IMG/VR virus record: IMGVR_UViG_3300013132_000235
Span: 1 to 25,297 of that record
Strand: one strand, 5' to 3'
DNA: 25,297 nt
Source: a virus
A program made the position numbers and the translations under genes. This document shows, one piece after another, positions 1,982 through 23,400 of the stretch (the first letter of the stretch is position 1; every line of letters starts with the position of its first letter). The notes under the pieces were generated by a model. The model was not told the DNA's origin. It saw only the letters and a program-made list of their open reading frames with translations, and made no database searches.

Positions 1982-3235
1982 TTAGCGGCCTCCGGGGAGC
2001 AGCAAGCCGACCGACCCGCGCCGCTTGATGAGCGGCCCAAGGGCGTAGCGAGTTGCGTCCCAGTAGTGGTTGTGCGCGTCCACGACGTCGGTGAGAACGT
2101 CACCGGTCATGCGATCGACCTTGTAGCTGTAGAGCCGGGCTTCCCGCAGCGTCGCGGTGCAGCGCGGATGAATGATGATTTCTTTGTAGCTGCGGAGATG
2201 GCTGATGCCGTCTTCAACGCTGCCGGGCCACTTCTCGACCGCTTCAATGCGTGGCAGGCAAAGACGCGTGCCATTCCCCGTGCTCTTGACGTGGCTGATC
2301 GTCTCCGGCCGGGCAGAGTCAGCTCGAACCGCATGTCTCTCGATGCCCGGCAAGGCGTCGATCATGAATTTCGCGATCGCGTCGTTTTCGAGGCCTATCT
2401 TTCCAGCCTCGTACTCGATGTAGAGGCGACGATCGTTGATCCAACTTTTGGTGCCAGCGGTCGGGTCCTGAGAGAAGCCCCAGTCGATGCCGAAGTAGGG
2501 GCCGCTCCAGCCAGCCTCCGGTTCAAATTCCGCAACTCGATACTTGCCGGAGAGGATCTGGGCGGCGCTGTTCTCGCGATAAGCGCCGTCCCATATCCAG
2601 GCGTAGGTCTGATCGTCGAGGCGATCACGATCATCAAGCCGTTCGCGCTCGAGCTCGGCAGGGAACCAAGGGTTGTCCGAGTAGTTGAGCTCGACAATCT
2701 TGGCGCCGACTGGCGGCTGCTTTCGAAAGCGCTTGTCGGTCGGGCTCCCGTCCTTCTCGGGATTCCAGGTGACCCAAATCTCTGAACCAGCTTCGCGAAC
2801 CGTTGGTGTGAGCTTCAGCCACGCCGTCTCGCTGACGTTCTCGGCTTCATCAACCCACGCAATGAGGATGCGCGCTTTCGACTTGATGCTGTCGACGTTG
2901 TGCCGAAGGCCCGAGAACACGTACGAAACCCTGCGGTTCTTGGTGCGGATGTACTTTTCGCCGATGTCGTAATAGGCATCGAGCCACGGCTCCGACCGAA
3001 TCGCCTGCTTGATCTCCTCCATGGAGGATTCTTCAAGCGAGTTCATGTACTCGCGAGCGCCGAGGATGACGCCAGAGATTCCAGCCTCGGCGAACATCAT
3101 CCCGCGCACTGCGGTCATCTTGGCGAAGCTACGAGTCTTCGCGCTGCCGCGCCCTCCATGCGCCCCTCGGTATCGGGCTGGCCCAGAGAAAACGGGGATC
3201 AGCTTCGGTGGAAGCTCAATCCTCGCCTTGGTCAT
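1982..3235 (-). CDS. terL: Terminase large subunit (packaging ATPase and nuclease)
   Basis: The 417-residue TerL powers DNA translocation through the portal and cuts the concatemer. The ATPase half has a Walker A loop GGRGSAKT at about residues 27-34 and a Walker B strand ending in VDEAE at about 124-131. A C-terminal RNase H-like nuclease half begins with FGIDWG, where D251 is a likely metal-binding aspartate; another acidic site is in VVDAHNHYWDATRYAL near the end. This layout matches the PBSX/Terminase_3 group. I chose ATG 3235; an in-frame TTG at 3256 would add seven residues. The start overlaps terS by 20 nt, which is typical coupling. Family and motifs make this one of the surest calls in the window. 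Confidence 0.96.
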   Translation of the reverse strand: MTKARIELPPKLIPVFSGPARYRGAHGGRGSAKTRSFAKMTAVRGMMFAEAGISGVILGAREYMNSLEESSMEEIKQAIRSEPWLDAYYDIGEKYIRTKNRRVSYVFSGLRHNVDSIKSKARILIAWVDEAENVSETAWLKLTPTVREAGSEIWVTWNPEKDGSPTDKRFRKQPPVGAKIVELNYSDNPWFPAELERERLDDRDRLDDQTYAWIWDGAYRENSAAQILSGKYRVAEFEPEAGWSGPYFGIDWGFSQDPTAGTKSWINDRRLYIEYEAGKIGLENDAIAKFMIDALPGIERHAVRADSARPETISHVKSTGNGTRLCLPRIEAVEKWPGSVEDGISHLRSYKEIIIHPRCTATLREARLYSYKVDRMTGDVLTDVVDAHNHYWDATRYALGPLIKRRGSVGLLLPGGR

Positions 3236-3560
3236 TGTCCGGCGCGACCAGTTCAATCACCGACGGAACCACCGCAATGGGACCGCCGTCCTTCCCGGAT
3301 ACCTGCGTGCTCGCGAGCCGCGGATGCAGATACGGCGCCGCCTTCTCGGCCAGCATCACCGCCTGCATGCGCTTGGCCATGTTCGGCTTCGGGCCCTGGT
3401 TCGCCTCATCCCAAAGCTCCCGCATCGTCTGCGTGATGATCTCCAGGGGCGTGATCCCGTCCTTCGCTAGATCGCGCGCCAGAGCCTTCCGTTCCTTGGT
3501 CTTCGGAAGCTCCGATCCCTTCTTGCGCCCCGCGCCGGGCCGGCTTCCACCTCTTGGCAT
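3216..3560 (-). CDS. terS: Terminase small subunit
   Basis: This 114-residue protein would recognise the phage pac or cos DNA and present it to TerL. It opens with GGSRPGAGRKKGSE, a basic AT-hook-like stretch often seen at the start of phage small terminase proteins. A helical region follows (ALARDLAKDGITPLEIITQTMREL), then a proline-containing C-terminal tail. The ATG at 3560 has GAGG about 10 nt upstream, a slightly long spacing. It sits directly before terL and overlaps it, and this context carries much of the assignment because TerS proteins diverge fast. A short A/T-rich inverted repeat lies just upstream, at the end of the preceding gene. Confidence 0.82.
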   Translation of the reverse strand: MPRGGSRPGAGRKKGSELPKTKERKALARDLAKDGITPLEIITQTMRELWDEANQGPKPNMAKRMQAVMLAEKAAPYLHPRLASTQVSGKDGGPIAVVPSVIELVAPDNDQGED

Positions 3561-9684: not shown

Positions 9685-9971
9685 GCCGATTCCTGCACGC
9701 GCGTGGTCTGAACAGCATCCGCATCTGGATTCCGAATGGGAACCAGATGGATGTTCTTGACCCATCCGCGAATTCCACTCGGCAATTCGCAGTGGTTGAT
9801 GATGTCGCCGCGATCGAATGACTTCAGATCCCTTGCTTCCTCAGGATCGGTGAGTACTTTTACGATCCGCGAGCGGCGATCGTTTTCCGTCACGGCTACA
9901 GCGCGGCTCCGGTCTTTTATGCAATGCCGGAGCACGTACGCCAGGTCGCCTTTGCGAGCTACGTCTCTCAT
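9681..9971 (-). CDS. Hypothetical 96-aa protein downstream of rdgC
   Basis: The product begins [20 protein letters not shown] and is basic at the N-terminus. A beta-rich middle with several acidic residues follows ([20 protein letters not shown]). The end, [20 protein letters not shown], could be a small OB- or SH3-like barrel strand pattern, but this is a guess. It overlaps the rdgC fusion gene and the nuclease gene by 4 nt each, so it may work with either. I do not recognise a family. Confidence 0.7.
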
Positions 9972-11125
9972 GCCGCCGCCTTGAACACTTCGCGTTGGCC
10001 ACCCGGGCCCGATGGTCCGACGATGCCTTCGACCTCCATGCGTTCCACCAAGCGCGCGGCGCGGTTGTAGCCGATCTTCAATCGACGCTGGACCCAGCTG
10101 ATGCTGGATTTGCGCGTCTCGATCACGAGCCTCACTGCGATGTCGTAGGCGGGATCGGGCTCTTCGCTGAACCGATCGTGGTCGGGCACGACGATGTCGG
10201 TTTCTTTGCTGGGCTCGGCCGCAGGCTTCTGATCGCCGAAGCTAATACCGAACGCTTCGAGCAAATCGGCGATCATCGGCCCGACTTGGCCGGTCATGAG
10301 CGTGAACTCAGCCTCGAACTGGCGCGCCGGGTCGATGCTGGGCTCTTCCTCGGCCTCGTCCATTTCCGTGAACTTGAGCCGGCTCACCTGCAGCTTGTCG
10401 TCGACGACGAGCGAGAGGCGGCCATTCCAGGTCAGCGCGAGCTTCGTCGCACGCAGCCCTTCCTCGAGATGGCGCTGAATCTGCTGCACGTCGAGGTTGT
10501 GGCGCGAATACTTCACCGTGGCTTTCGCCGCGTCGCCGCTGGTGAGCGTGCATTCCTCGCCGATGTCGAAGCGGCCGGGCGCGTGGCGAGCAGACAGCCA
10601 GTCGGTGAGCTTCTGGCCCGGCAAAGCCTTGGTCTGCGGTAACGACACCGACAGCTCACCGAGCGTCTCGCGCAGGAACTCCACCAGCTGCTCGGCCTTG
10701 GCCGGCGAAGAAGAATCAATGACCAGCAGGCCGGCGGTCGGATCGATCCAGGCGCGGACGACGGTCCGCTTAACGAACGCGCGCGGCAGCAGCTCGGCCG
10801 AGATGATCTCCTTGAAATCGCGCAGCTGCTTGCGCCCGGGCTTGAAGCCCTTTTCGCGCTCGAACTCGACTGCGCGCTGCTTGACCGCATCATTGAGCAC
10901 GGACGACGGCAGTAGCTTCTGATCGACGCCGAGCGCGATCAGCAAATGACGCTCAACGCCCTGAACCAGCGGTACGTCATCGATCGGCGGAACCCAGCCG
11001 CGCGATTCCGTGGACATCGCCGAGCACGGCTGCAGCGTGCGCTGCGCAAGCTTCTCCTCGAGCGCGCCGGCCGTCAACAACCAGGATTGCTCCAGGCGGT
11101 AGATCAACAGGTTCTTGAACCACAT
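9968..11125 (-). CDS. rdgC: RdgC recombination-associated protein fused to an FtsK-gamma domain
   Basis: Residues 1 to about 292 match RdgC, a ring-shaped DNA-binding protein that inhibits Rec[12 protein letters not shown] at the start, [21 protein letters not shown] and [10 protein letters not shown] line up in order with the E. coli protein, whose usual length is about 300 residues. After a linker, residues 321-385 form an FtsK-gamma winged helix: [20 protein letters not shown], then [20 protein letters not shown] and a GQREV end. In FtsK this domain reads KOPS (GGGNAGGG) and activates XerCD at dif. The fusion could target RdgC to such DNA or to Xer sites; this is inference. GGAG lies 8 nt before ATG 11125. 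Phage RdgC proteins are common, but I do not know this fusion as a described one. Confidence 0.93.
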
Positions 11126-12547: not shown

Positions 12548-12699
12548 TCGTGTTCGTCCTTGCCCGGAACGCTGTCGGGAGTCAGAGCACTCGACTCGCG
12601 CTCAGCGGCGCGGTCGATGGTCACCGTCAACGAGTCGGAGTTGTCGCGCTCAACGCGGACGGTCACGCCGGGAGCGCAGTGGACGATTACCTGCGTCAC
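12544..12699 (-). CDS. 51-aa hypothetical protein after cro
   Basis: A short frame from GTG 12699, overlapping the cro stop as a GTGA junction, to TGA 12544, which itself overlaps the next ATG. The product begins VTQVIVHCAPGVTVRVERDN and then SLTVTIDRAAERE, a plausible set of beta strands followed by a charged tail. GGAGG lies about 7 nt before the GTG. Its place between two coupled genes is the main argument that it is translated. No homologue is recognised. Confidence 0.65.
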   Translation of the reverse strand: MTQVIVHCAPGVTVRVERDNSDSLTVTIDRAAERESSALTPDSVPGKDEHE

Positions 12700-12953
12700 G
12701 CCGCCTCCTGCTGCTCGGAGTTCGCGGCGGGCGGGACGGGGCCGAAAATTTCCGGGCGCATCTCATGCTTGGATACGCGCCCATCCGTCGCTGTATCGAG
12801 GAGCACCGCAGCTTCGGGCGTGAGCTTTTCACTCTGCAGCCACTTCCAGACATGACCCTGGCGAACCTTGCCTCCGATCTTTCGGGCCAGACCGCTCTGC
12901 GTGCCGCCGCAAAGGTCGATTGCACGCTTGACGAAGGGGTTTTCACGTTCCAT
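12696..12953 (-). CDS. Cro-like / YdaS-type HTH regulator
   Basis: The 85-residue protein begins MERENPFVKRAIDLCGGTQS and continues with a helix-turn-helix (SGLARKIGGKVRQGHVWKWL, about residues 20-39), followed by LTPEAAVLLDTATDGRVSKH. This is the usual look of Cro/YdaS repressors of lambdoid phages, which turn down early transcription and favour lytic growth. It is the first gene of the leftward early chain and is divergent from the repressor gene. There is no Shine-Dalgarno before its ATG; the operator O1 covers the likely -10 region, so its mRNA may be leaderless. The C-terminus is a flexible PAANSEQQEAA tail. Confidence 0.87.
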   Translation of the reverse strand: MERENPFVKRAIDLCGGTQSGLARKIGGKVRQGHVWKWLQSEKLTPEAAVLLDTATDGRVSKHEMRPEIFGPVPPAANSEQQEAA

Positions 12954-12960: not shown

Positions 12961-12964
12961 GACT

Positions 12965-12978
12965 ACTACTAGGGTAGT
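12965..12978. promoter_or_regulatory. Operator O1
   Basis: ACTACTAGGGTAGT, a 14-bp partial palindrome with arms ACTAC/GTAGT, is centred about 18 bp from the cro ATG and covers its likely -10 region. It is one of five copies of the motif. Together with O2 it lies in the cro promoter (TTGACC at 12984-12989 on the leftward strand as -35, TAGTCT as a weak -10). Confidence 0.85.
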
Positions 12979-12988
12979 GAATTGGTCA

Positions 12989-13002
12989 ACTACGGTGGTA
13001 GT
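12989..13002. promoter_or_regulatory. Operator O2
   Basis: ACTACGGTGGTAGT, with perfect five-base arms. Its centre is 24 bp from that of O1, the same spacing as O4-O5 at the second locus. It sits at the -35 end of the leftward cro promoter. Confidence 0.87.
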
Positions 13003-13033
13003 GAATCAGCTAGTGAGCTCGTTCGCGGCGCCT

Positions 13034-13047
13034 ACTACGGCGGTAGT
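13034..13047. promoter_or_regulatory. Operator O3
   Basis: ACTACGGCGGTAGT, extended to seven-base perfect arms (CTACTAC/GTAGTAG, 13032-13049). It is centred 19.5 bp before the cI ATG, the mirror image of O1 before cro, so it is well placed for the repressor or Cro to control cI. Confidence 0.87.
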
Positions 13048-13052
13048 AGCTT

Positions 13053-13065
13053 TGGCTGCATGGAA
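13053..13065 (+). repeat. Right arm of the 13-bp inverted repeat around the cI start codon
   Basis: TGGCTGCATGGAA contains the cI ATG (13060-13062). It is the exact inverted copy of 12948-12960, and similarity continues outward through GTAGTAG into operators O1 and O3. This suggests an inverted duplication of the promoter and start region. Confidence 0.9.
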
Positions 13066-13536
13066 TTTAAAGATCGGATTCGGAAGGTGCGGGGCAGTGA
13101 CTCGCAGACTGTTGCCGCAACGAAAGCGGGCATATCGCAGCAGATGTGGTCAAAGCTAGAGAAGGGGAAGTTATCTCCGGACGACACCTCTGTGTTGCCA
13201 GCCATTCAACGGGCTTATCCAACATATAGATTGGAGTGGCTCGTCAGCGGCGCACCTCCGATGCATGTGATCGCAGCGCAAGCGCTTGGGGTGCATGAAG
13301 TCGGAAAGCCGTATGGAAGACCTGGAATTATCCTTAGACCGGACGATCCAGATACCGTCCGACCGCTCGGCAAACTTCAGGAAGCACTCGTTTCAGAAGT
13401 TAAGCGATTAGCTGGGTCTCTGACAGACGAAGATGCTAAGGCGCTTCTGACTCTTTTCTATCGATGCGTGAAAGATCCAGACTCTCAAGATTCGACAGAT
13501 GAAATTCAAAAGGTGGAAGGATCCAGCTTGCGGTAA
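13060..13536 (+). CDS. CI-like phage repressor without a self-cleavage domain
   Basis: The 158-residue protein has an N-terminal HTH: MEFKDRIRKVRGSDSQTVAA, then ATKAGISQQMWSKLEKGKL, followed by YPTYRLEWLVSGAPPM, typical of lambdoid repressors. The C-terminus (LQEALVSEVKRLAGSLTDED, LLTLFYRCV) is helical and probably dimerises the protein. It lacks the S24 peptidase domain with its catalytic Ser-Lys pair, so RecA-driven self-cleavage is not expected; induction may need an antirepressor. The frame is open upstream through the operators, but ATG 13060 matches the cro start context. It probably binds the ACTAC-N4-GTAGT sites here and at 17.2 kb. Its codons are less GC-rich than those of the flanking operons. 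Confidence 0.87.
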   Translation: MEFKDRIRKVRGSDSQTVAATKAGISQQMWSKLEKGKLSPDDTSVLPAIQRAYPTYRLEWLVSGAPPMHVIAAQALGVHEVGKPYGRPGIILRPDDPDTVRPLGKLQEALVSEVKRLAGSLTDEDAKALLTLFYRCVKDPDSQDSTDEIQKVEGSSLR

Positions 13537-13571: not shown

Positions 13572-13982
13572 ATGGGGGCGGCGATGGGGAATGGTATTGT
13601 CTTGTTTGTGGGGTTGTTTTTTCTTGCCGGTTGCGCGTCTAGCGGCAAGCCGATTGACCCTGGGGCAGCAACTGCTGTTGTGAAAGGGAAAACCACCGAG
13701 TCCGAGCTATATCAGATGGTGGGTCGGCGACCGGAATCCCTGTCGCTGATGCCAGACGGCAAGAAGATGGCGACTTGGATATACACCCGCGCGCAGACAA
13801 AGGCGGCGACGTTCGTGCCGATCGTTGGCCTATTTGCAGGAGGAACTGATCTTGACACCACAACCCTGCAAGCAATCATCTCCACGGACGGGGTTGTCGA
13901 GAACGTGCTCTACAACTCATCACAGACCGAGGTTGGGCTCGGCGGAAGTCCCGCCCCACAGCCAATTCCACCAGTGAAGTGA
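13572..13982 (+). CDS. Lipoprotein with BamE/SmpA-like domain
   Basis: The 136-residue product has a lipoprotein signal (GNGIVLFVGLFFLAGCASSG, lipobox LAGC with the lipidated Cys near residue 21). The rest resembles the small BamE/OmlA fold: VKGKTTESELYQMVGRRPES, a DGKKMATWIY strand, and a FVPIVGLFAGG loop. It would sit in the envelope of the lysogen. Known phage lipoproteins can block adsorption or DNA entry of other phages; that role is inferred here from position. ATG 13584 is an alternative start. It is the first cargo gene after cI, 36 nt downstream with no terminator, so it may be read from the cI promoter. A GTGA junction marks its end. Confidence 0.82.
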   Translation: MGAAMGNGIVLFVGLFFLAGCASSGKPIDPGAATAVVKGKTTESELYQMVGRRPESLSLMPDGKKMATWIYTRAQTKAATFVPIVGLFAGGTDLDTTTLQAIISTDGVVENVLYNSSQTEVGLGGSPAPQPIPPVK

Positions 13983-13993
13983 GGCGTCTGGAA

Positions 13994-14524
13994 ATGGAAC
14001 CGAAGCAGGGGGAAAGGGGCCTGTGGTACGTCGGCACAGTTGGGTTTGGCTCCAAGGAGGCGGCTGATGAATACATCAGGAATGGCTTCTCAACAGTACC
14101 TCGTCAGCTTCCCATTCAAAGCCTTGCGCCCAGCCATCCTGATGTTCGAGTTGCGGCGATCGCGATTTCTATCGTTGTGACGATGCTCATCGCGGGCTGG
14201 TACTTATTGGACTATCGAAGCGTCGAGAAGATAGCCGAGCGCAAGCAAACCGAAGTGGCCAAGAAATGCAGCGACACGACCATGGCTTACGTCATGTCGC
14301 AGAACTATGCGAAGCGCCTCTTGAAGGCGCCTGGCAGCGCAGACTTTCCGATGATCACTGAGGTGTCATCGAGGGCGATCGGCGATTGCAAGTTCGAGAT
14401 TCTGGCCTACGTCGATGCGCAAAACTCTTTCGGCGCGAAGATGCGCACGGGTTATAGCGCAACGATGAGCTTCGATCCCGAAACCGATCGGTGGAGCGCC
14501 GACGATCTCAAGATTGATCGGTGA
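13994..14524 (+). CDS. Single-pass membrane protein of unknown function
   Basis: This 176-residue protein starts MEPKQGERGLWYVGTVGFG, has one transmembrane helix near residues 55-75 (VAAIAISIVVTMLIAGWYLL), and carries a C-terminal domain with LLKAPGSADFP and later ILAYVDAQNSFGAKMRTGYS. The APxSADFP...VDAQNSFGA...R pattern recurs in many small bacterial membrane proteins of unknown role. I chose ATG 13994 (GAGG 9 nt upstream); an upstream GTG 13979 overlaps the lipoprotein stop. The gene is close behind the lipoprotein and probably cotranscribed. The charged N-terminus is likely cytoplasmic. Confidence 0.78.
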   Translation: MEPKQGERGLWYVGTVGFGSKEAADEYIRNGFSTVPRQLPIQSLAPSHPDVRVAAIAISIVVTMLIAGWYLLDYRSVEKIAERKQTEVAKKCSDTTMAYVMSQNYAKRLLKAPGSADFPMITEVSSRAIGDCKFEILAYVDAQNSFGAKMRTGYSATMSFDPETDRWSADDLKIDR

Positions 14525-14583
14525 GGACGGCCAAGACGGCTTGCGCGGAACTTTTTTGCGCTTAGTGTTGCGCTGGAGATTTG

Positions 14584-14853
14584 ATGTCTAGGACTCTCGA
14601 AGAGCTTGATAATGTTGTCCGCCAGCTCAGCCAAGCTTGGGCAGCAAATCACTATGCCAGCACCGTCCTTGCGGCCGCCATCGGGACACTTGCCGGCGGG
14701 AAAGAAGCCCTGCGCGCTCCTCTCGTTGAGGCATACGCGGCTGCCCGACGAGGGCGCCAGCGCGAGCATGACATTTCAGATCGAGCCATGAAGATCCTCG
14801 CCGAGTACGCCGAGAAGGCTGGCATCAGCGATTTCCCTCCGCCCGAGACTTAA
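14584..14853 (+). CDS. Small helical hypothetical protein
   Basis: An 89-residue product starting MSRTLEELDNVVRQLSQAWA, helical, with TLAGGKEALRAPLVEAYAAA and a C-terminus rich in charged residues (RRGRQREHDISDRAMKIL). No membrane or catalytic motif is seen. GGAG lies 5 nt before the ATG, and 59 nt separate it from the previous gene. The next gene's ATG directly follows its stop. Function unknown; it may partner the coiled-coil membrane protein that follows. Confidence 0.7.
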   Translation: MSRTLEELDNVVRQLSQAWAANHYASTVLAAAIGTLAGGKEALRAPLVEAYAAARRGRQREHDISDRAMKILAEYAEKAGISDFPPPET

Positions 14854-15303
14854 ATGGATACGTCTGGCGTCGACTGGAATGAATGGCTGAATAGAGTGGG
14901 GGACGCCGGCCCCTTGTTTGACACCAAGCCACTTACCCGCAAGCATGAGGCCATGACCGAGATCACTCGCCCAGAGCTTGATGCGCGCTTCGAAGCGATG
15001 GAAGCCCGCGCGGAAGCGCGTGATGCCCGCATCGAGGGGAAATTGGGGCAGATCGAATCCAGGCTCGACGCAAAGTTCGACTTCTTGTCGCTTCAGCTCG
15101 GGGCGCTCAGGGAGGATATTGCCTCAACTCGTACCGAAGCCCGATCGACCAAGGCAAATGTCTGGTATGCGGCAGTGACTGTTATCTCCATCGGCGTTGC
15201 TGCGGTCGCATTGTTCCCGCAGTTCTTCGACTTCGGAGAGAAAGTGCGCGAGACCGCCAGGCAAGAGGCCGCCAAAGTCGCTGAACAGCCGCCACCTAAG
15301 TAG
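14854..15303 (+). CDS. Coiled-coil membrane protein
   Basis: The 149-residue protein has a heptad-like region (MTEITRPELDARFEAMEARA, then EGKLGQIESRLDAKFDFLSL), one transmembrane helix near residue 110 (VWYAAVTVISIGVAAVALFP) and a short charged tail. Proteins starting with ITRPELDA... plus a coiled coil and a C-terminal anchor are common small prophage membrane proteins of unknown role. An internal ATG 14953 would give just that form (116 residues); the first 33 codons also look coding, so I kept ATG 14854. A weak hairpin follows at 15322-15340. Confidence 0.72.
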   Translation: MDTSGVDWNEWLNRVGDAGPLFDTKPLTRKHEAMTEITRPELDARFEAMEARAEARDARIEGKLGQIESRLDAKFDFLSLQLGALREDIASTRTEARSTKANVWYAAVTVISIGVAAVALFPQFFDFGEKVRETARQEAAKVAEQPPPK

Positions 15304-15321
15304 GTTCGAGCGCGTCGCCTA

Positions 15322-15340
15322 GCCCCGCCACGCGCGGGGC
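15322..15340 (+). terminator. Weak hairpin, possible attenuator
   Basis: A 7-bp stem, GCCCCGC/GCGGGGC, with a 5-nt loop lies 19 nt after the coiled-coil gene. No T-run follows, so full termination is doubtful. Confidence 0.4.
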
Positions 15341-15401
15341 CTTCGAGGTGCCTTGAGAGTGGCGGAAGGGAAAGGCGGAAATAGATTCTCGGGGTTGGGC
15401 A

Positions 15402-15887
15402 ATGAACGATTGGGTCAAGGTGTGCCGCGCGCATTGCTCGCGGATTAAGTACGTTGCAGAGCCCATGGAATGGCGCCAGCGCCCGAATCATGCGCAGTCC
15501 TATCGGGCGACTTCAGTGCTGCTCGACGACGCGCGCATCGTGATACCTGGGCTGCAGTTGCAGTGCGAATTCCGGCCCTCGTCAATCAGGGGCGATTACG
15601 CAAGCTTCACCCTTCTGTACCGCGGGCTCCGCGAAACACACCGGGTATTCCAACTTGAGGTCTATCCACGAGATCGGATGTCTCATCGAGACGCTGAGAG
15701 GACCATCTACGGACCCCACATCCTGCTGGGTGATCCTAGACTGAGTTGCGTTGTCCGACCTGTGGTGAGCGCCATAGAGCAAGCAGACGATCCGCGGTGG
15801 ATTGGTCGATTCGTGAGGCATTCCCGCGTTTCCAATGATGGAGCCAACGCTCTAATATCTGTTGCTGGTGAATTGTTCGGATCGTAG
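15402..15887 (+). CDS. Unknown protein paired with a DUF1828 gene
   Basis: The 161-residue protein begins MNDWVKVCRAHCSRIKYVAE and contains IVIPGLQLQCEFRPSSIRGD, FTLLYRGLRETHRVFQLEVY and ILLGDPRLSCVVRP, alternating strands and helices without a catalytic motif I recognise. It ends only two nt before the DUF1828 start, so the two are likely one functional unit. About 100 nt and a weak hairpin separate it from the gene before. Codon use is mixed and less GC-rich than in the phage core operons. A toxin-antitoxin or defence pair is possible but not shown. Confidence 0.68.
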   Translation: MNDWVKVCRAHCSRIKYVAEPMEWRQRPNHAQSYRATSVLLDDARIVIPGLQLQCEFRPSSIRGDYASFTLLYRGLRETHRVFQLEVYPRDRMSHRDAERTIYGPHILLGDPRLSCVVRPVVSAIEQADDPRWIGRFVRHSRVSNDGANALISVAGELFGS

Positions 15888-15889
15888 CC

Positions 15890-16618
15890 ATGGGCTGCCA
15901 TGATTTGATGAGCCAAATTGGCTGGCACTGCCGCGACATTGAGACGTTGCGCGGCGAGAGAGCGACCTATGTGTGCACGCCGCTGACTCTGAGCAGTGGC
16001 AAGCCGCTTGATTTTTTTCTCGTCGAGAACGGCGAGGAGTTGCGCTTCACCGATGATGGAACGGTGATGTTCGAAATGTATGGAATGGGCTATCCGCTGG
16101 ACGACCGAAGGAACTGGCGTGGGCTTGAGGGCATTGCCGAGGCATTCGGGTTCAGACTTTCTGATGATGGCGCTTTCACAGTCAGTTTCACGCGGAATGA
16201 ACTTTGGTTGTGGGGCGGTCGAATACTGCAACTCTTCGCCGCGGTGATGCAGTGGGATGAAGACCGCCGGGCAGACCACGATCAAGACCTCACCTTGCTA
16301 AAGCTCGTTGAAGATCTTCTGCGCTCGAAAGCTCCGGATAGAAAATTGGAAGCGCCAGCAGCTGTAACGGTTCGCGGAACGGACTTGCGTTTCGATTTCC
16401 GCTGGGGCAATCGCTATGTTGATGCCGTCCCGGCTCGAGCTCAGTCGACGAATGCCAGGCTAAGAAAAGCGATCATCGCGCGTTCCGAGATCGATCCGAC
16501 CGACATGCTGTTTGTTGTCGACGACAGATCCAGCATTGAGAAGGCTGATCGTGAAGTGCTAGTGCTGGGTGAGTTGGCCTCAGCGGTCGCGCTCAGGAAT
16601 TTCGCCATGGCCGCGTAG
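15890..16618 (+). CDS. DUF1828-domain protein
   Basis: The 242-residue protein shows a DUF1828-like N-terminal domain: a TYVCTPLTLSSGKPLDFFLV strand pair, the hallmark EELRFTDDGTVMFEMYGMGY, and further IAEAFGFRLSDDGAFTV. The C-terminal half (FDFRWGNRYVDAVPARAQS, then DMLFVVDDRSSIEKADREVL) could be a DUF1829-like module. The families are of unknown function and found in prophages and mobile regions. The gene follows its partner by two nt and is closed by a strong terminator, so the pair forms the end of a transcript. A nuclease-like role is sometimes suspected for such strand-rich proteins, but I see no metal-binding signature. Confidence 0.77.
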   Translation: MGCHDLMSQIGWHCRDIETLRGERATYVCTPLTLSSGKPLDFFLVENGEELRFTDDGTVMFEMYGMGYPLDDRRNWRGLEGIAEAFGFRLSDDGAFTVSFTRNELWLWGGRILQLFAAVMQWDEDRRADHDQDLTLLKLVEDLLRSKAPDRKLEAPAAVTVRGTDLRFDFRWGNRYVDAVPARAQSTNARLRKAIIARSEIDPTDMLFVVDDRSSIEKADREVLVLGELASAVALRNFAMAA

Positions 16619-16634
16619 GCCGGGCGGTTCGACG

Positions 16635-16657
16635 AACCCCGCTCCGGCGGGGTTTTT
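16635..16657 (+). terminator. Rho-independent terminator after the DUF1828 gene
   Basis: An 8-bp stem, AACCCCGC/GCGGGGTT, with a TCCG loop runs into TTTTT. It closes the transcript that can start at cI. Confidence 0.88.
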
Positions 16658-16867
16658 CATGCCTGCAGGCCGGCCGTTGTAGCACCTGCACTTTCGCGCC
16701 CCCCTGCAGTTTCCCGTAGCTCCTGCACCAGCCCCGTACAGCCAGACGCGAAGCTTCTGAATCCTCACCCTGCCATCAGCGTCATGGGCGCGATTTACCC
16801 ATAGCGGCGGCCCTTGGCTTGGGCCAGCCTCGAAGTGTTCCGCAGGGGAACATCACAGGGGAATTCT
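16658..16867. repeat. Non-coding stretch with four CCTGCA copies
   Basis: No gene is seen here. CCTGCA recurs at 16662, 16685, 16703 and 16722, 18-23 bp apart, in a C-rich context with short runs such as CCCCCC. It could be a protein-binding array or chance in this composition. A promoter for the secreted Cys-rich protein should also lie here, but I cannot place it. Confidence 0.4.
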
Positions 16868-17116
16868 ATGAGGCGCATTGCATTCGGGCTGATGCTGCTC
16901 GTCAGCACTCTTTCATTCGCCGCCAACGAGGCGCCCGGCAAGCTGCTGGAGCGGGGCGAGCAGGCGACGTCGATCCTGGCCGCGGCGCACTCAGACGACG
17001 CGGTCGAGGTTGCTCAGCGCTGCTGCAAGCATTGCAGCGCTGGCAAGGCCTGCGGGGATAGCTGCATCTCGCGGGAAAAGCAGTGCCGCAAGGGACCAGG
17101 CTGCGCCTGCGACTGA
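16868..17116 (+). CDS. Secreted cysteine-rich small protein
   Basis: The 82-residue protein has a Sec signal peptide (MRRIAFGLMLLVSTLSFA, cleavage likely before ANEA). Its C-terminal module has eight cysteines in RCCKHCSAGKACGDSC and CRKGPGCACD. The mature part would be periplasmic and held by disulfides or metal. I have seen this Cys module in small bacterial secreted proteins without a known function. AGGGG lies 7 nt before the ATG. The gene is flanked by its own terminator and a preceding terminator, so it is a single-gene unit in the cargo block. A longer frame from 16814 has no support. Confidence 0.82.
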   Translation: MRRIAFGLMLLVSTLSFAANEAPGKLLERGEQATSILAAAHSDDAVEVAQRCCKHCSAGKACGDSCISREKQCRKGPGCACD

Positions 17117-17137: not shown

Positions 17138-17162
17138 AGCCCCGCCCAGTGCGGGGCTTTTT
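17138..17162 (+). terminator. Rho-independent terminator before the rightward early operon
   Basis: An 8-bp perfect stem, AGCCCCGC (17138-17145) with GCGGGGCT (17151-17158), is followed by a T-run to 17162. It insulates the rightward early promoter from cargo transcription. Confidence 0.88.
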
Positions 17163-17205
17163 CTTGGGCTGGAGTTAGCTGAGGGTTGACCGTTCGTCGG
17201 GAACT

Positions 17206-17219
17206 ACTACTGTGGTAGT
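17206..17219. promoter_or_regulatory. Operator O4
   Basis: ACTACTGTGGTAGT, the same 14-bp motif as at cro/cI, but 4.2 kb away, in front of the rightward early operon. Confidence 0.85.
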
Positions 17220-17229
17220 TGTAAAGATA

Positions 17230-17243
17230 ACTACTGTAGTAGT
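17230..17243. promoter_or_regulatory. Operator O5
   Basis: ACTACTGTAGTAGT has perfect arms and lies exactly 24 bp from O4 centre to centre, as O1 and O2 do. The pair is a mirror of lambda OL. Confidence 0.85.
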
Positions 17244-17285
17244 AGATTACATCCCACCGAAGCCGCGCACAGATGGGAGCCGCAG

Positions 17286-19981: not shown

Positions 19982-20476
19982 ATGAGTTTGCTCACCGCCA
20001 TGCGCTTGCGGTCATTGATTCGCTATGACCCGGAAACCGGATTGTTCACCAACTTGGTGACTCGCGGTTCTCGCGCCATTGCGGGAGCGATTGCTGGTAG
20101 CCCTGACGCGGACGGTTATCTGCAAATCAAGATCGATGGGGAGAACTTGAAGGCTCACCGCCTTGCATTTCTCTACATGACCGGTGAGTGGCCGGTCGAT
20201 CTTGTCGATCACAGAAACGGCGTCGTTTCGGATAACCGCTGGGACAACCTTCGGAATGCGACTCCGATAACCAACAGTCAGAACAAGCACAAGGCTTACA
20301 GCAGCAACGAACTCGGAATTCTTGGCGTGAGTTACGACAAGGCCCGATGCAAGTACATCGCACAACTCGCGATTGAAGGCCGACAGACCAACCTAGGGCG
20401 GTTCGATACAGCTGCTGCTGCCGAGGCTGCGTACATCGCGGCAAAGCGCCTCCACCACGAAGGAAACACATTGTGA
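19982..20476 (+). CDS. HNH endonuclease with AP2 DNA-binding domain
   Basis: The 164-residue protein has an HNH core near residues 58-95 (KAHRLAFLYMTGEWPVDLVD, then HRNGVVSDNRWDNLRNATP with key H and N residues). The C-terminal AP2-like domain (GVSYDKARCKYIAQLAIEGR, LGRFDTAAAAEAAY, about 113-150) would bind DNA. This is the standard free-standing homing-type endonuclease of phages. It lies between the coiled-coil gene and recT and ends in a GTGA junction, so it does not break the operon. Its codons (tat, aga-like use, more A/T) differ from those of its neighbours, a sign of transfer. Confidence 0.88.
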   Translation: MSLLTAMRLRSLIRYDPETGLFTNLVTRGSRAIAGAIAGSPDADGYLQIKIDGENLKAHRLAFLYMTGEWPVDLVDHRNGVVSDNRWDNLRNATPITNSQNKHKAYSSNELGILGVSYDKARCKYIAQLAIEGRQTNLGRFDTAAAAEAAYIAAKRLHHEGNTL

Positions 20477-22114: not shown

Positions 22115-22804
22115 ATGTCCGACACCGAGCAACGCACCGAAGCCTGGTTCGCAGCCCGCTGCGGCCGCATCACCGCGAGGCGCTTTAAGGACGCCATCGA
22201 CATCCCCGAAGATGCAGGCCAGCCGTACAAGTCTGGCCCGCGGAAAGGGCAGCCGCGTCCGCGCAGCTCGCAGGCGCGCGACACCTACATGCGCGAGATC
22301 GTATTCGAGCGTCGCAGCCAGCAGTCGGTGCATCAGATTGGCGGTCGCTCGCTGACCTGGGGAACCGAGGTCGAGCCCTACATCTGGGAGGCCTTCGAGC
22401 TTCAAACCGGCCTGATGGTGAGGCCGGGCGGCTTCGTCACGCACGAGAAGTACCCGTTTCTCGGTGCGAGCCCTGATGCGCTGATCGGCAGCACTGCCGG
22501 CGGCGAATCGAAGGCACCTTACAGCGAGGCTGTGCATCTGCAGACGATCCTCAATGGCATGCCAGAGGATCACGTCGACCAGGTGCAGGGCGGCATGCTC
22601 GTCACCGGTCTGCAGGGCTGGTATTTCTGTTCGTACGACCCGCGGCAAGCGGAAGCTGATCGCCTCTACATCCAATACGTGAAGCGTGATGAGCGCTACA
22701 TCCAGGAAGTGCTGTTGCCCGGATTGCTGCAGTTTGAAGCGGAAGTTCAGCAACTCATGAAGCAGTTGGATCGCCGTCCTGTGCTGGTCGGGATGGCAGC
22801 ATGA
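22115..22804 (+). CDS. YqaJ/lambda-type recombination exonuclease
   Basis: The 229-residue protein would resect double-stranded DNA 5'-3' to load RecT. The catalytic pattern of the lambda exonuclease family is present: WGTEVEP (E85), FLGASPDALI (D121), GGESKAP (E131, K133), then VDQVQGGMLVTG (Q motif). The N-terminal start EQRTEAWFAARCGRITARRF is the usual YqaJ opening. A long insert with basic PRKGQPRPRSS lies between. ATG 22115 follows the previous stop by two nt, and the end overlaps the next ATG by 4 nt. Together with RecT this forms a full two-component recombinase. Confidence 0.92.
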   Translation: MSDTEQRTEAWFAARCGRITARRFKDAIDIPEDAGQPYKSGPRKGQPRPRSSQARDTYMREIVFERRSQQSVHQIGGRSLTWGTEVEPYIWEAFELQTGLMVRPGGFVTHEKYPFLGASPDALIGSTAGGESKAPYSEAVHLQTILNGMPEDHVDQVQGGMLVTGLQGWYFCSYDPRQAEADRLYIQYVKRDERYIQEVLLPGLLQFEAEVQQLMKQLDRRPVLVGMAA

Positions 22805-23400
22805 GGACGTTTGACCTCAGCAATTTCGGCCTGCCTGACGGCTACTCGATTCGTGAAGATGGCGCCGTAATTTCGACGCGTAGCGGCTCGTCGTTTCAAC
22901 TCTCGATGCATATTGCGAAGTCCGGCTATCCGGCTGTGGGGCTCAAGGTCGGTCGCAAGACCCGTGTCTGGCTCATCCATCGGCTGCTGGCTTTGGCCTT
23001 CATTCCGAACCCGGAATCGAAGCCGCAGGTGAACCACATCGACGGGGTGAAGACTAACTTCGCCTTGTCGAATCTTGAGTGGGCCACGGACGCTGAGAAC
23101 AAGCTTCACGCGTATCGGATCGGGCTGGTCAAAGCCGACACTCCACTTCGACAGCTGGTGTCTCAGAAGGCATCAGCTGCGGCGCGTAGCAGCACAAGGG
23201 CATTGTCCGACGATCAGGTAACCGACATCCGGCGTCGGTTGGCAGCGAAGGAAACGCAAACGGCGATTGTTCTTGCAACGGGCATCAAACGCCATGTCAT
23301 CGCGAGCATCGCGTGTGGGCGCACCTATCGAAAGTCGAGCGCCGAACTGCAGGCCGTGATCCAGCGCTGCGACGCACTCGCAATGGAACTGGCCGCATGA
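22801..23400 (+). CDS. HNH endonuclease with C-terminal HTH (homing type)
   Basis: The 199-residue protein begins MRTFDLSNFGLPDGYSIRED. The HNH_3-like core is HRLLALAFIPNPESKPQVNH, followed by IDGVKTNFALSNLEWATDAE with its N and H residues (about residues 60-105). The C-terminal part (ALSDDQVTDIRRRLAAKETQ; ATGIKRHVIASIACGRTY) is a helix-turn-helix of the type found in homing endonucleases. It is overlapped by 4 nt at both sides (ATGA), so it is stitched into the operon without loss of coupling. It differs in family from the AP2-type HNH at 19982, so the two came in separately. Confidence 0.87.
   Translation: MRTFDLSNFGLPDGYSIREDGAVISTRSGSSFQLSMHIAKSGYPAVGLKVGRKTRVWLIHRLLALAFIPNPESKPQVNHIDGVKTNFALSNLEWATDAENKLHAYRIGLVKADTPLRQLVSQKASAAARSSTRALSDDQVTDIRRRLAAKETQTAIVLATGIKRHVIASIACGRTYRKSSAELQAVIQRCDALAMELAA

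What the first reader, a model, noticed from the sequence alone, without database searches (positions are those of the whole stretch)
13572..17116. Cargo block in the lambda rex position: candidate new exclusion or defence module
Seven genes oriented like cI lie between the repressor and the second operator pair, the place of rexAB in lambda. They are less GC-rich than the phage core and encode a BamE-like lipoprotein, two membrane proteins, a small helical protein, an unknown plus DUF1828 pair, and a secreted Cys-rich protein. There is no strong terminator between cI and the end of the DUF1828 gene, so they can be expressed in the lysogen. This is the best candidate for an undescribed system in the window.
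Basis: partly seen in the sequence, partly recalled or inferred. Interest (0 to 1): 0.75.

Follow-up and report, generated by a model that had tools for sequence, protein, structure and literature searches.

The report
Two-gene immunity cassette in Rex slot
Behind this phage's repressor gene, where phage lambda keeps its exclusion genes, sits a conserved gene pair that travels as a unit between unrelated temperate phages and, in bacterial chromosomes, sometimes lies inside restriction-modification operons; it is probably a prophage-borne anti-phage system, for which no experimental test was found.

Summary
The anatomy is confirmed: seven co-oriented genes lie between a cI-type repressor and a second operator pair, in the position of rexAB. 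They are not one module. Four upstream genes (lipoprotein, two single-pass membrane proteins, small helical protein) and the Cys-rich gene behind the terminator look like individual morons. The core is the pair 15402-15887 (A) and 15890-16618 (B).

A is a distant DUF6978 relative and B is DUF1828. The pair is a phage branch of PADLOC's candidate system PDC-M24. In 52 viral loci found by searching for the pair alone, 46 have an S24-type CI on the same strand within 2.5 kb upstream, four more (including the window) have a short HTH repressor, and none has CI on the opposite strand. A and B diverge together (r=0.94), but neither tracks CI (r=0.04-0.07). Some chromosomal relatives sit between hsdS and hsdR or beside other methyltransferases. 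There is no similarity to RexA and no membrane protein in the pair.

Most likely it is a lysogen-expressed two-protein anti-phage system, with A as a possible enzyme (conserved R...H...HxH) and B as sensor or DNA-binding partner. The function is inferred, not shown.

The parts
12696..12953 (-). Cro-like / YdaS-family regulator, divergent from cI
   Evidence: PF15943 4.9e-13, phrog_35 repressor 1.1e-14
12962..13047 (.). Operator-like palindromes at the cI end (12962-12978, 12987-13001, 13031-13047)
   Evidence: repeat families D1, D3; pattern 31 against 5.2 expected
13060..13536 (+). cI-type repressor, 158 aa, HTH only, no S24 domain
   Evidence: PHROG repressor families about 5e-6; HTH_31/HTH_3 below cut-off
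13572..13982 (+). Gene 1: lipoprotein (LAGC lipobox), probably a moron
   Evidence: phrog_3135 2.9e-14; lipobox; no convincing homologue near other pairs
13994..14524 (+). Gene 2: single-pass membrane protein, moron family
   Evidence: phrog_13160 4e-13; relatives lie between tail genes in other phages
14584..14853 (+). Gene 3: small helical protein, unknown
   Evidence: ORF; no significant family match
14854..15303 (+). Gene 4: coiled coil plus one TM helix, unknown
   Evidence: TM at about 102-120; no significant family match
15402..15887 (+). Gene 5 (A): phrog_2017, distant DUF6978 relative; conserved R81, H95, H106-x-H108; predicted beta-rich fold
   Evidence: phrog_2017 2.3e-26; hhalign to DUF6978-type sets E 2.3e-7, 1.9e-10, 4e-5; AF2 pLDDT 88
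15890..16618 (+). Gene 6 (B): DUF1828 N-terminal lobe plus C-terminal lobe with PD-(D/E)XK-like topology
   Evidence: PF08861 3.2e-7, phrog_1960 2.5e-47, PDC-M24B 1.9e-5; AF2 pLDDT 85.5
16630..16657 (+). Intrinsic terminator closing the cI-to-DUF1828 unit
   Evidence: -25.3 kcal/mol, z -2.95 for 16619-16665
16868..17116 (+). Gene 7: secreted Cys-rich protein, separate unit (own terminator about 17138-17160)
   Evidence: ORF; terminator hairpin -32.3 kcal/mol
17203..17245 (.). Second operator pair (OL-like)

Best explanation
Genes 5 and 6 (A and B) form a two-gene anti-phage (exclusion) cassette of the DUF6978-DUF1828 kind (PADLOC candidate PDC-M24), carried in the lysogenic operon. SHOWN by sequence: A and B are adjacent and co-oriented (2 nt apart here, 4-nt ATGA-type overlap in many relatives), evolve as a unit, and are placed behind a cI-type repressor in phages with unrelated repressors; their chromosomal relatives include copies inside RM operons. 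INFERRED: CI-controlled transcription makes both proteins in the lysogen and switches them off in the phage's own lytic cycle, so the prophage avoids self-harm; A and B act together in the cytoplasm; A, with an R...H...HxH set conserved across very divergent branches, is the enzyme-like effector; B (DUF1828 lobe plus a nuclease-fold-like, perhaps non-catalytic lobe) holds A in check and recognises an incoming phage's nucleic acid or protein; infection releases A, which stops phage replication or the cell. The other five genes are separate morons. The stated confidence is for the defence function of the pair; the division of labour between A and B is much less certain (about 0.3).
For: Pair co-occurrence: 13 of 13 records with B also have A, adjacent. 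Slot: 46 of 52 viral loci have an S24-type CI on the same strand within 2.5 kb upstream, none on the opposite strand; window, L074, L154 and L155 have short HTH repressors there. Pfam confirms S24 in 10 of 10 tested and an HTH in 9. It holds in phages of Pseudomonas, Acinetobacter and Helicobacter. Crude background: 22.6% of ORFs in pair-centred loci. Cassette behaviour: A-B distance correlation 0.937 (Mantel p 0.0005) against CI-A 0.04 and CI-B 0.07; one B cluster at 90% identity (10 loci) sits under several CI clusters, 4 even at 40% identity. Defence association: L053 proteins match PDC-M24A (7e-72) and PDC-M24B (1.8e-108) and lie downstream of hsdS and upstream of hsdR; so do L046/L084 and, by reading the sequences, L114; L051/L086 adjoins a type III-like Mod; L116 and L117 lie by other methyltransferase-like genes. 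Homology: B to the PDC-M24B protein of L053 E 4.7e-7; A to DUF6978-type profiles. The slot holds proven systems: lambda rexAB, BstA (PMC8585504), RexABpp (PMC12894663). A motif conserved in A6, A10 and A11.
Against: No experiment was found on the pair or on PDC-M24, which is itself only a candidate; PDC systems are described as putative, found by guilt-by-embedding (PMC10855318). The window's B scores only 22 bits to PDC-M24B and its A has no PADLOC hit. In the window 1.86 kb and a GC-rich hairpin separate cI from A, so read-through is not assured. Many chromosomal copies have no RM neighbour that I could recognise. B's nuclease-like residues are not conserved in the DUF6978 branch. Structure matches to PDB are all weak (E above 0.01). 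The slot also carries genes with no detected defence function: deletions of PP_3897 or PP_3898 did not sensitise P. putida. Two viral loci (L072, L008) lack a recognisable cI upstream.
Confidence: 0.58

Rival explanations
1. The pair is a toxin-antitoxin addiction module: A is a small toxin (R...H...HxH enzyme), B its antitoxin, and the pair stabilises the prophage rather than fighting phages.
For: Two small overlapping or abutting genes, enzyme-like invariants in A, strict co-evolution, neighbouring MazEF-like and Fic-like genes in some chromosomal loci.
Against: B (240-260 aa, two lobes) is large for an antitoxin; placement behind cI in 50 of 52 viral loci and inside RM operons is not needed for addiction. 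Many defence systems are TA-like, so this overlaps with the main reading.
Confidence: 0.17
2. The pair modulates restriction-modification (restriction alleviation or control of RM activity), which would explain both RM-embedded copies and benefit to a phage.
For: Copies between hsdS and hsdR (L053/L088, L046/L084; L114) and beside other methyltransferases.
Against: Phage copies appear to be under cI control and so would be off when an incoming phage needs anti-restriction; no RM genes were noticed beside phage-borne copies; candidate defence genes embedded in RM operons are common.
Confidence: 0.1
3. The pair is an accessory regulator of the lysis-lysogeny switch rather than an exclusion system.
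For: Constant proximity to cI; RexA is reported to bias the lambda switch (PMC11077077).
Against: The pair is indifferent to which CI it follows (CI-A r 0.04, CI-B r 0.07), and relatives exist in chromosomes without a recognisable phage repressor.
Confidence: 0.08
4. All seven genes form one functional exclusion system.
For: Co-orientation and no strong terminator before the end of the DUF1828 gene; lipoprotein or membrane genes also occur between cI and the pair in some loci (L013, L018, L075).
Against: Genes 1, 3, 4 and 7 have no convincing homologues in the other pair loci; gene 2 relatives lie between tail genes; gene 7 is behind the terminator; several phages have cI-A-B with nothing in between.
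Confidence: 0.05

Closest known systems
PADLOC candidate system PDC-M24 (PDC-M24A = DUF6978-type, PDC-M24B = DUF1828)
   Same: Two adjacent genes in the same order; B homologous (E 1.9e-5 to the HMM, hhalign 4.7e-7 to a member); A related by profile-profile comparison.
   Different: Phage branch, strongly diverged (A below PADLOC detection), carried behind cI rather than inside RM operons.
Lambda RexA-RexB and the RexAB-type systems (Sbash, CarolAnn, RexABpp of Pseudomonas putida)
   Same: Two genes in the cI operon between repressor and second operator; a position read in the lysogen.
   Different: No RexA similarity (hhalign probability 0.1 and 0.3%); neither protein of the pair has a TM segment, whereas RexB is a multi-pass membrane effector.
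BstA (Salmonella prophage BTP1)
   Same: Prophage defence gene placed downstream of the cI repressor in diverse prophages (PMC8585504).
   Different: A single protein with a cognate DNA self-immunity element (aba); no sequence comparison with BstA was made and no aba-like element was looked for here.
DUF1828-DUF1829 proteins
   Same: Gene 6 has DUF1828; a relative in a Helicobacter prophage has both domains over the cut-off.
   Different: DUF1829 itself is not detected in the window protein; no function was found for either domain.

Membership tests
PDC-M24 (DUF6978-DUF1828 candidate defence system) | B protein with DUF1828 domain | tested here: met
   PF08861 3.2e-7 over cut-off; PDC-M24B 1.9e-5
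PDC-M24 (DUF6978-DUF1828 candidate defence system) | A protein of the DUF6978 / PDC-M24A family | tested here: inconclusive
   No direct Pfam or PADLOC hit; profile-profile E 2.3e-7, 1.9e-10, 4e-5 to DUF6978-type partner sets
PDC-M24 (DUF6978-DUF1828 candidate defence system) | A directly upstream of B, same strand | tested here: met
   15402-15887 then 15890-16618; same in relatives
PDC-M24 (DUF6978-DUF1828 candidate defence system) | Protects against phages | not testable with these tools
   No published test found in the paper library
RexAB | RexA homologue (DNA-binding, RdgC-related fold) | tested here: not met
   hhalign of A5 and A6 to lambda RexA: probability 0.1 and 0.3%; RexA not among the 50 listed PDB matches of either model
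RexAB | RexB-like multi-pass membrane effector | tested here: not met
   No TM segment in genes 5 and 6, one each in genes 2 and 4
RexAB | Position in the cI operon before the second operator | tested here: met
PD-(D/E)XK nuclease superfamily (for B) | alpha-beta-beta-beta-alpha-beta core | tested here: inconclusive
   AF2 topology H102-147, E157-161, E164-172, E175-180, H189-197, E206-210; only weak Foldseek matches to VC1899, AF1548, Bax1, FANCM, Vsr and DUF559 proteins
PD-(D/E)XK nuclease superfamily (for B) | Conserved D...(D/E)xK active site | tested here: not met
   E141, D178 and K193 invariant in the phage branch, but no (D/E)xK motif, and D178 often Q in the DUF6978 branch

The most novel reading that the evidence does not exclude
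A widespread but unrecognised prophage exclusion system: a mobile A-B cassette with a new kind of enzyme (beta-rich fold with R...H...HxH) and a DUF1828 sensor, shared between the rex slot of temperate phages and RM operons of bacteria.
Probability: 0.45. Interest if true: 0.75.

Novelty: new variant of a known kind. Interest (0 to 1): 0.6.

Why it matters
It ties a computational defence candidate, proposed because relatives lie inside known immune operons, to an independent line of evidence: fixed placement in the lysogenic operon of temperate phages with unrelated repressors. That turns two weak guesses into one testable system, suggests the rex slot as a search site for further exclusion genes, and points to a conserved set of catalytic-looking residues in a family with no known function.

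Tried and rejected
RexA homology: none. One seven-gene system: rejected. Solved relatives by sequence: only chance matches for B and none for A. Fold of A: no credible match in the PDB. The Escherichia coli control genome matches phrog_1960, phrog_2017 and DUF1828, but two distant blastn searches of E. coli genomes did not locate the copy. Plasmids: no match to B. Relatives of gene 1 in viral contigs: none. A viral-contig search with the single window B protein found nothing, and a broad alignment was too diverse; narrower alignments worked. The idea that RdgC-FtsK-gamma at 9968-11125 is linked to the Rex question was dropped: relatives of that protein over its full length are common in Pseudomonas phages.
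Full report
The window is a 25,297-base virus record with terminase on the minus strand at 1982-3256 and early-type genes (YqaJ-like recombinase, HNH) on the plus strand. The region asked about lies between a divergent YdaS/Cro-like gene and short cI-type repressor on one side and a second set of operator-like palindromes on the other. The palindromes (12962-13047 and 17203-17245) far exceed chance. The arrangement matches lambda, where rexA and rexB lie between cI and the left operators. The transcription unit probably ends at a strong terminator just after the DUF1828 gene, which puts the Cys-rich gene 7 outside it.

The block is composite. Gene 2 belongs to a moron family that sits between tail genes in other phages. 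Genes 1, 3, 4 and 7 have no convincing homologue in any other locus that carries the pair. Genes 5 and 6 behave quite differently. Gene 6 is DUF1828 (PF08861 3.2e-7; phrog_1960 2.5e-47) and gene 5 is phrog_2017 (2.3e-26). All 13 records tested that carry gene 6 also carry gene 5, directly upstream.

Placement was then tested without selecting for it: loci were fetched with the pair proteins only (and phage records). In 52 viral loci, 46 have an S24-type CI repressor on the same strand less than 2.5 kb upstream of B; none has one on the opposite strand. The window, L074, L154 and L155 have short HTH repressors without S24 (the last three read by eye). L072 and L008 have no recognisable cI. The detection profile was built from CI proteins of some of these same loci, but Pfam independently calls Peptidase S24 in 10 of 10 tested, with an HTH in 9. 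The count includes near-duplicates: B falls into 26 clusters at 90% identity, and the CI proteins into 35 clusters at 90% and 12 at 40%. As a crude background, 22.6% of ORFs in these pair-centred loci have such a CI upstream, which overstates the genome-wide rate. The rule holds in Pseudomonas phage P7869, Acinetobacter phage Acba_11 and a Helicobacter pametensis prophage.

The pair moves as a unit. Over 16 loci the distances of A and B correlate at 0.937 (Mantel p 0.0005), while CI correlates with A at 0.04 and with B at 0.07. In L013, L014 and L015 the pair is nearly identical but the repressors are only distantly alike. One B cluster of ten loci sits under four CI clusters even at 40% identity. 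So the cassette is repeatedly placed behind different repressors, rather than inherited with one immunity type.

The pair has bacterial relatives. DUF1828 proteins in chromosomes often have an upstream partner that is DUF6978 or close to it, and PADLOC lists the two as candidate defence system PDC-M24, A and B (L053: 7e-72 and 1.8e-108). PDC systems are described as putative, found by guilt-by-embedding (PMC10855318). In the genomes sampled here, the pair lies between hsdS and hsdR in L046/L084 and L053/L088, apparently also L114, beside a type III-like Mod in L051/L086, and beside other methyltransferase-like genes in L116 and L117; these neighbour calls were made by reading the sequences, not by a profile search. 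Other chromosomal copies have no such neighbour that I could recognise. The window gene 6 family aligns with the L053 protein at E 4.7e-7. Window gene 5 has no direct hit to DUF6978, but its family aligns with DUF6978-type sets at E 2.3e-7, 1.9e-10 and 4e-5.

Mechanism. In A, an arginine and three histidines (R...H...HxH) are invariant or nearly so in the window's branch (R81, H95, H106; H108 nearly invariant, and L in the window protein's own register reads GPHILLGD, so the window protein itself lacks the third histidine), in the second phage branch and in the DUF6978 branch. That suggests an active or metal-binding site, and the model (pLDDT 88) is beta-rich with no credible PDB match. In B, D55 is invariant in all 40 sequences compared; the C-terminal lobe has the strand and helix order of PD-(D/E)XK nucleases, with weak matches to such proteins, but the catalytic motif is not met. 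I therefore propose A as effector and B as restraining sensor or DNA-binding partner. This step is inference; the reverse assignment is possible.

Known systems in this slot are lambda RexAB, BstA (PMC8585504) and RexABpp of P. putida (PMC12894663). The pair sits in the same place and probably under the same control, but it is not a RexAB member: no RexA similarity and no membrane component. It is best filed as a diverged, phage-borne variant of PDC-M24. The library held no paper on the function of DUF1828, DUF6978 or PDC-M24; preprints and most subscription papers are not covered, so a report elsewhere cannot be excluded.

Limits: no expression or phage data; a structured 98-nt gap before gene 5 in the window leaves read-through from cI uncertain; the window's own A departs from the consensus at the third histidine; and the pair's role in the chromosomal loci is equally untested.

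Noticed in passing
window 9968-11125 (-): RdgC (PF04381 8.5e-97) fused to an FtsK gamma domain (PF09397 5.8e-24). Relatives over the full length are common in Pseudomonas phages, so the fusion looks ordinary.
   Followed up: partly
window 13060-13536; L074, L154, L155: Some phages with the pair have a short HTH-only repressor without the S24 cleavage domain, unlike the majority; how such prophages are induced is unclear.
   Followed up: no
window 15402-15887, residue 108: The window's A protein has L where nearly all relatives have the third histidine (GPHILLGD against GPHxHLGD), so this copy could be altered or inactive at the proposed site.
   Followed up: no
window 19982-20476 and 22801-23400: Two HNH_3 endonuclease-like genes (one with a weak AP2 match) in the early region.
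   Followed up: no
window 15321-15343 and 17138-17160: Two 83%-alike GC-rich hairpins; the second is a terminator with a U tract, the first (between genes 4 and 5) lacks it and may be a decayed terminator.
   Followed up: partly
Escherichia coli control genome of the genome search: An E. coli genome matches both pair families and DUF1828, but the copy could not be located.
   Followed up: partly
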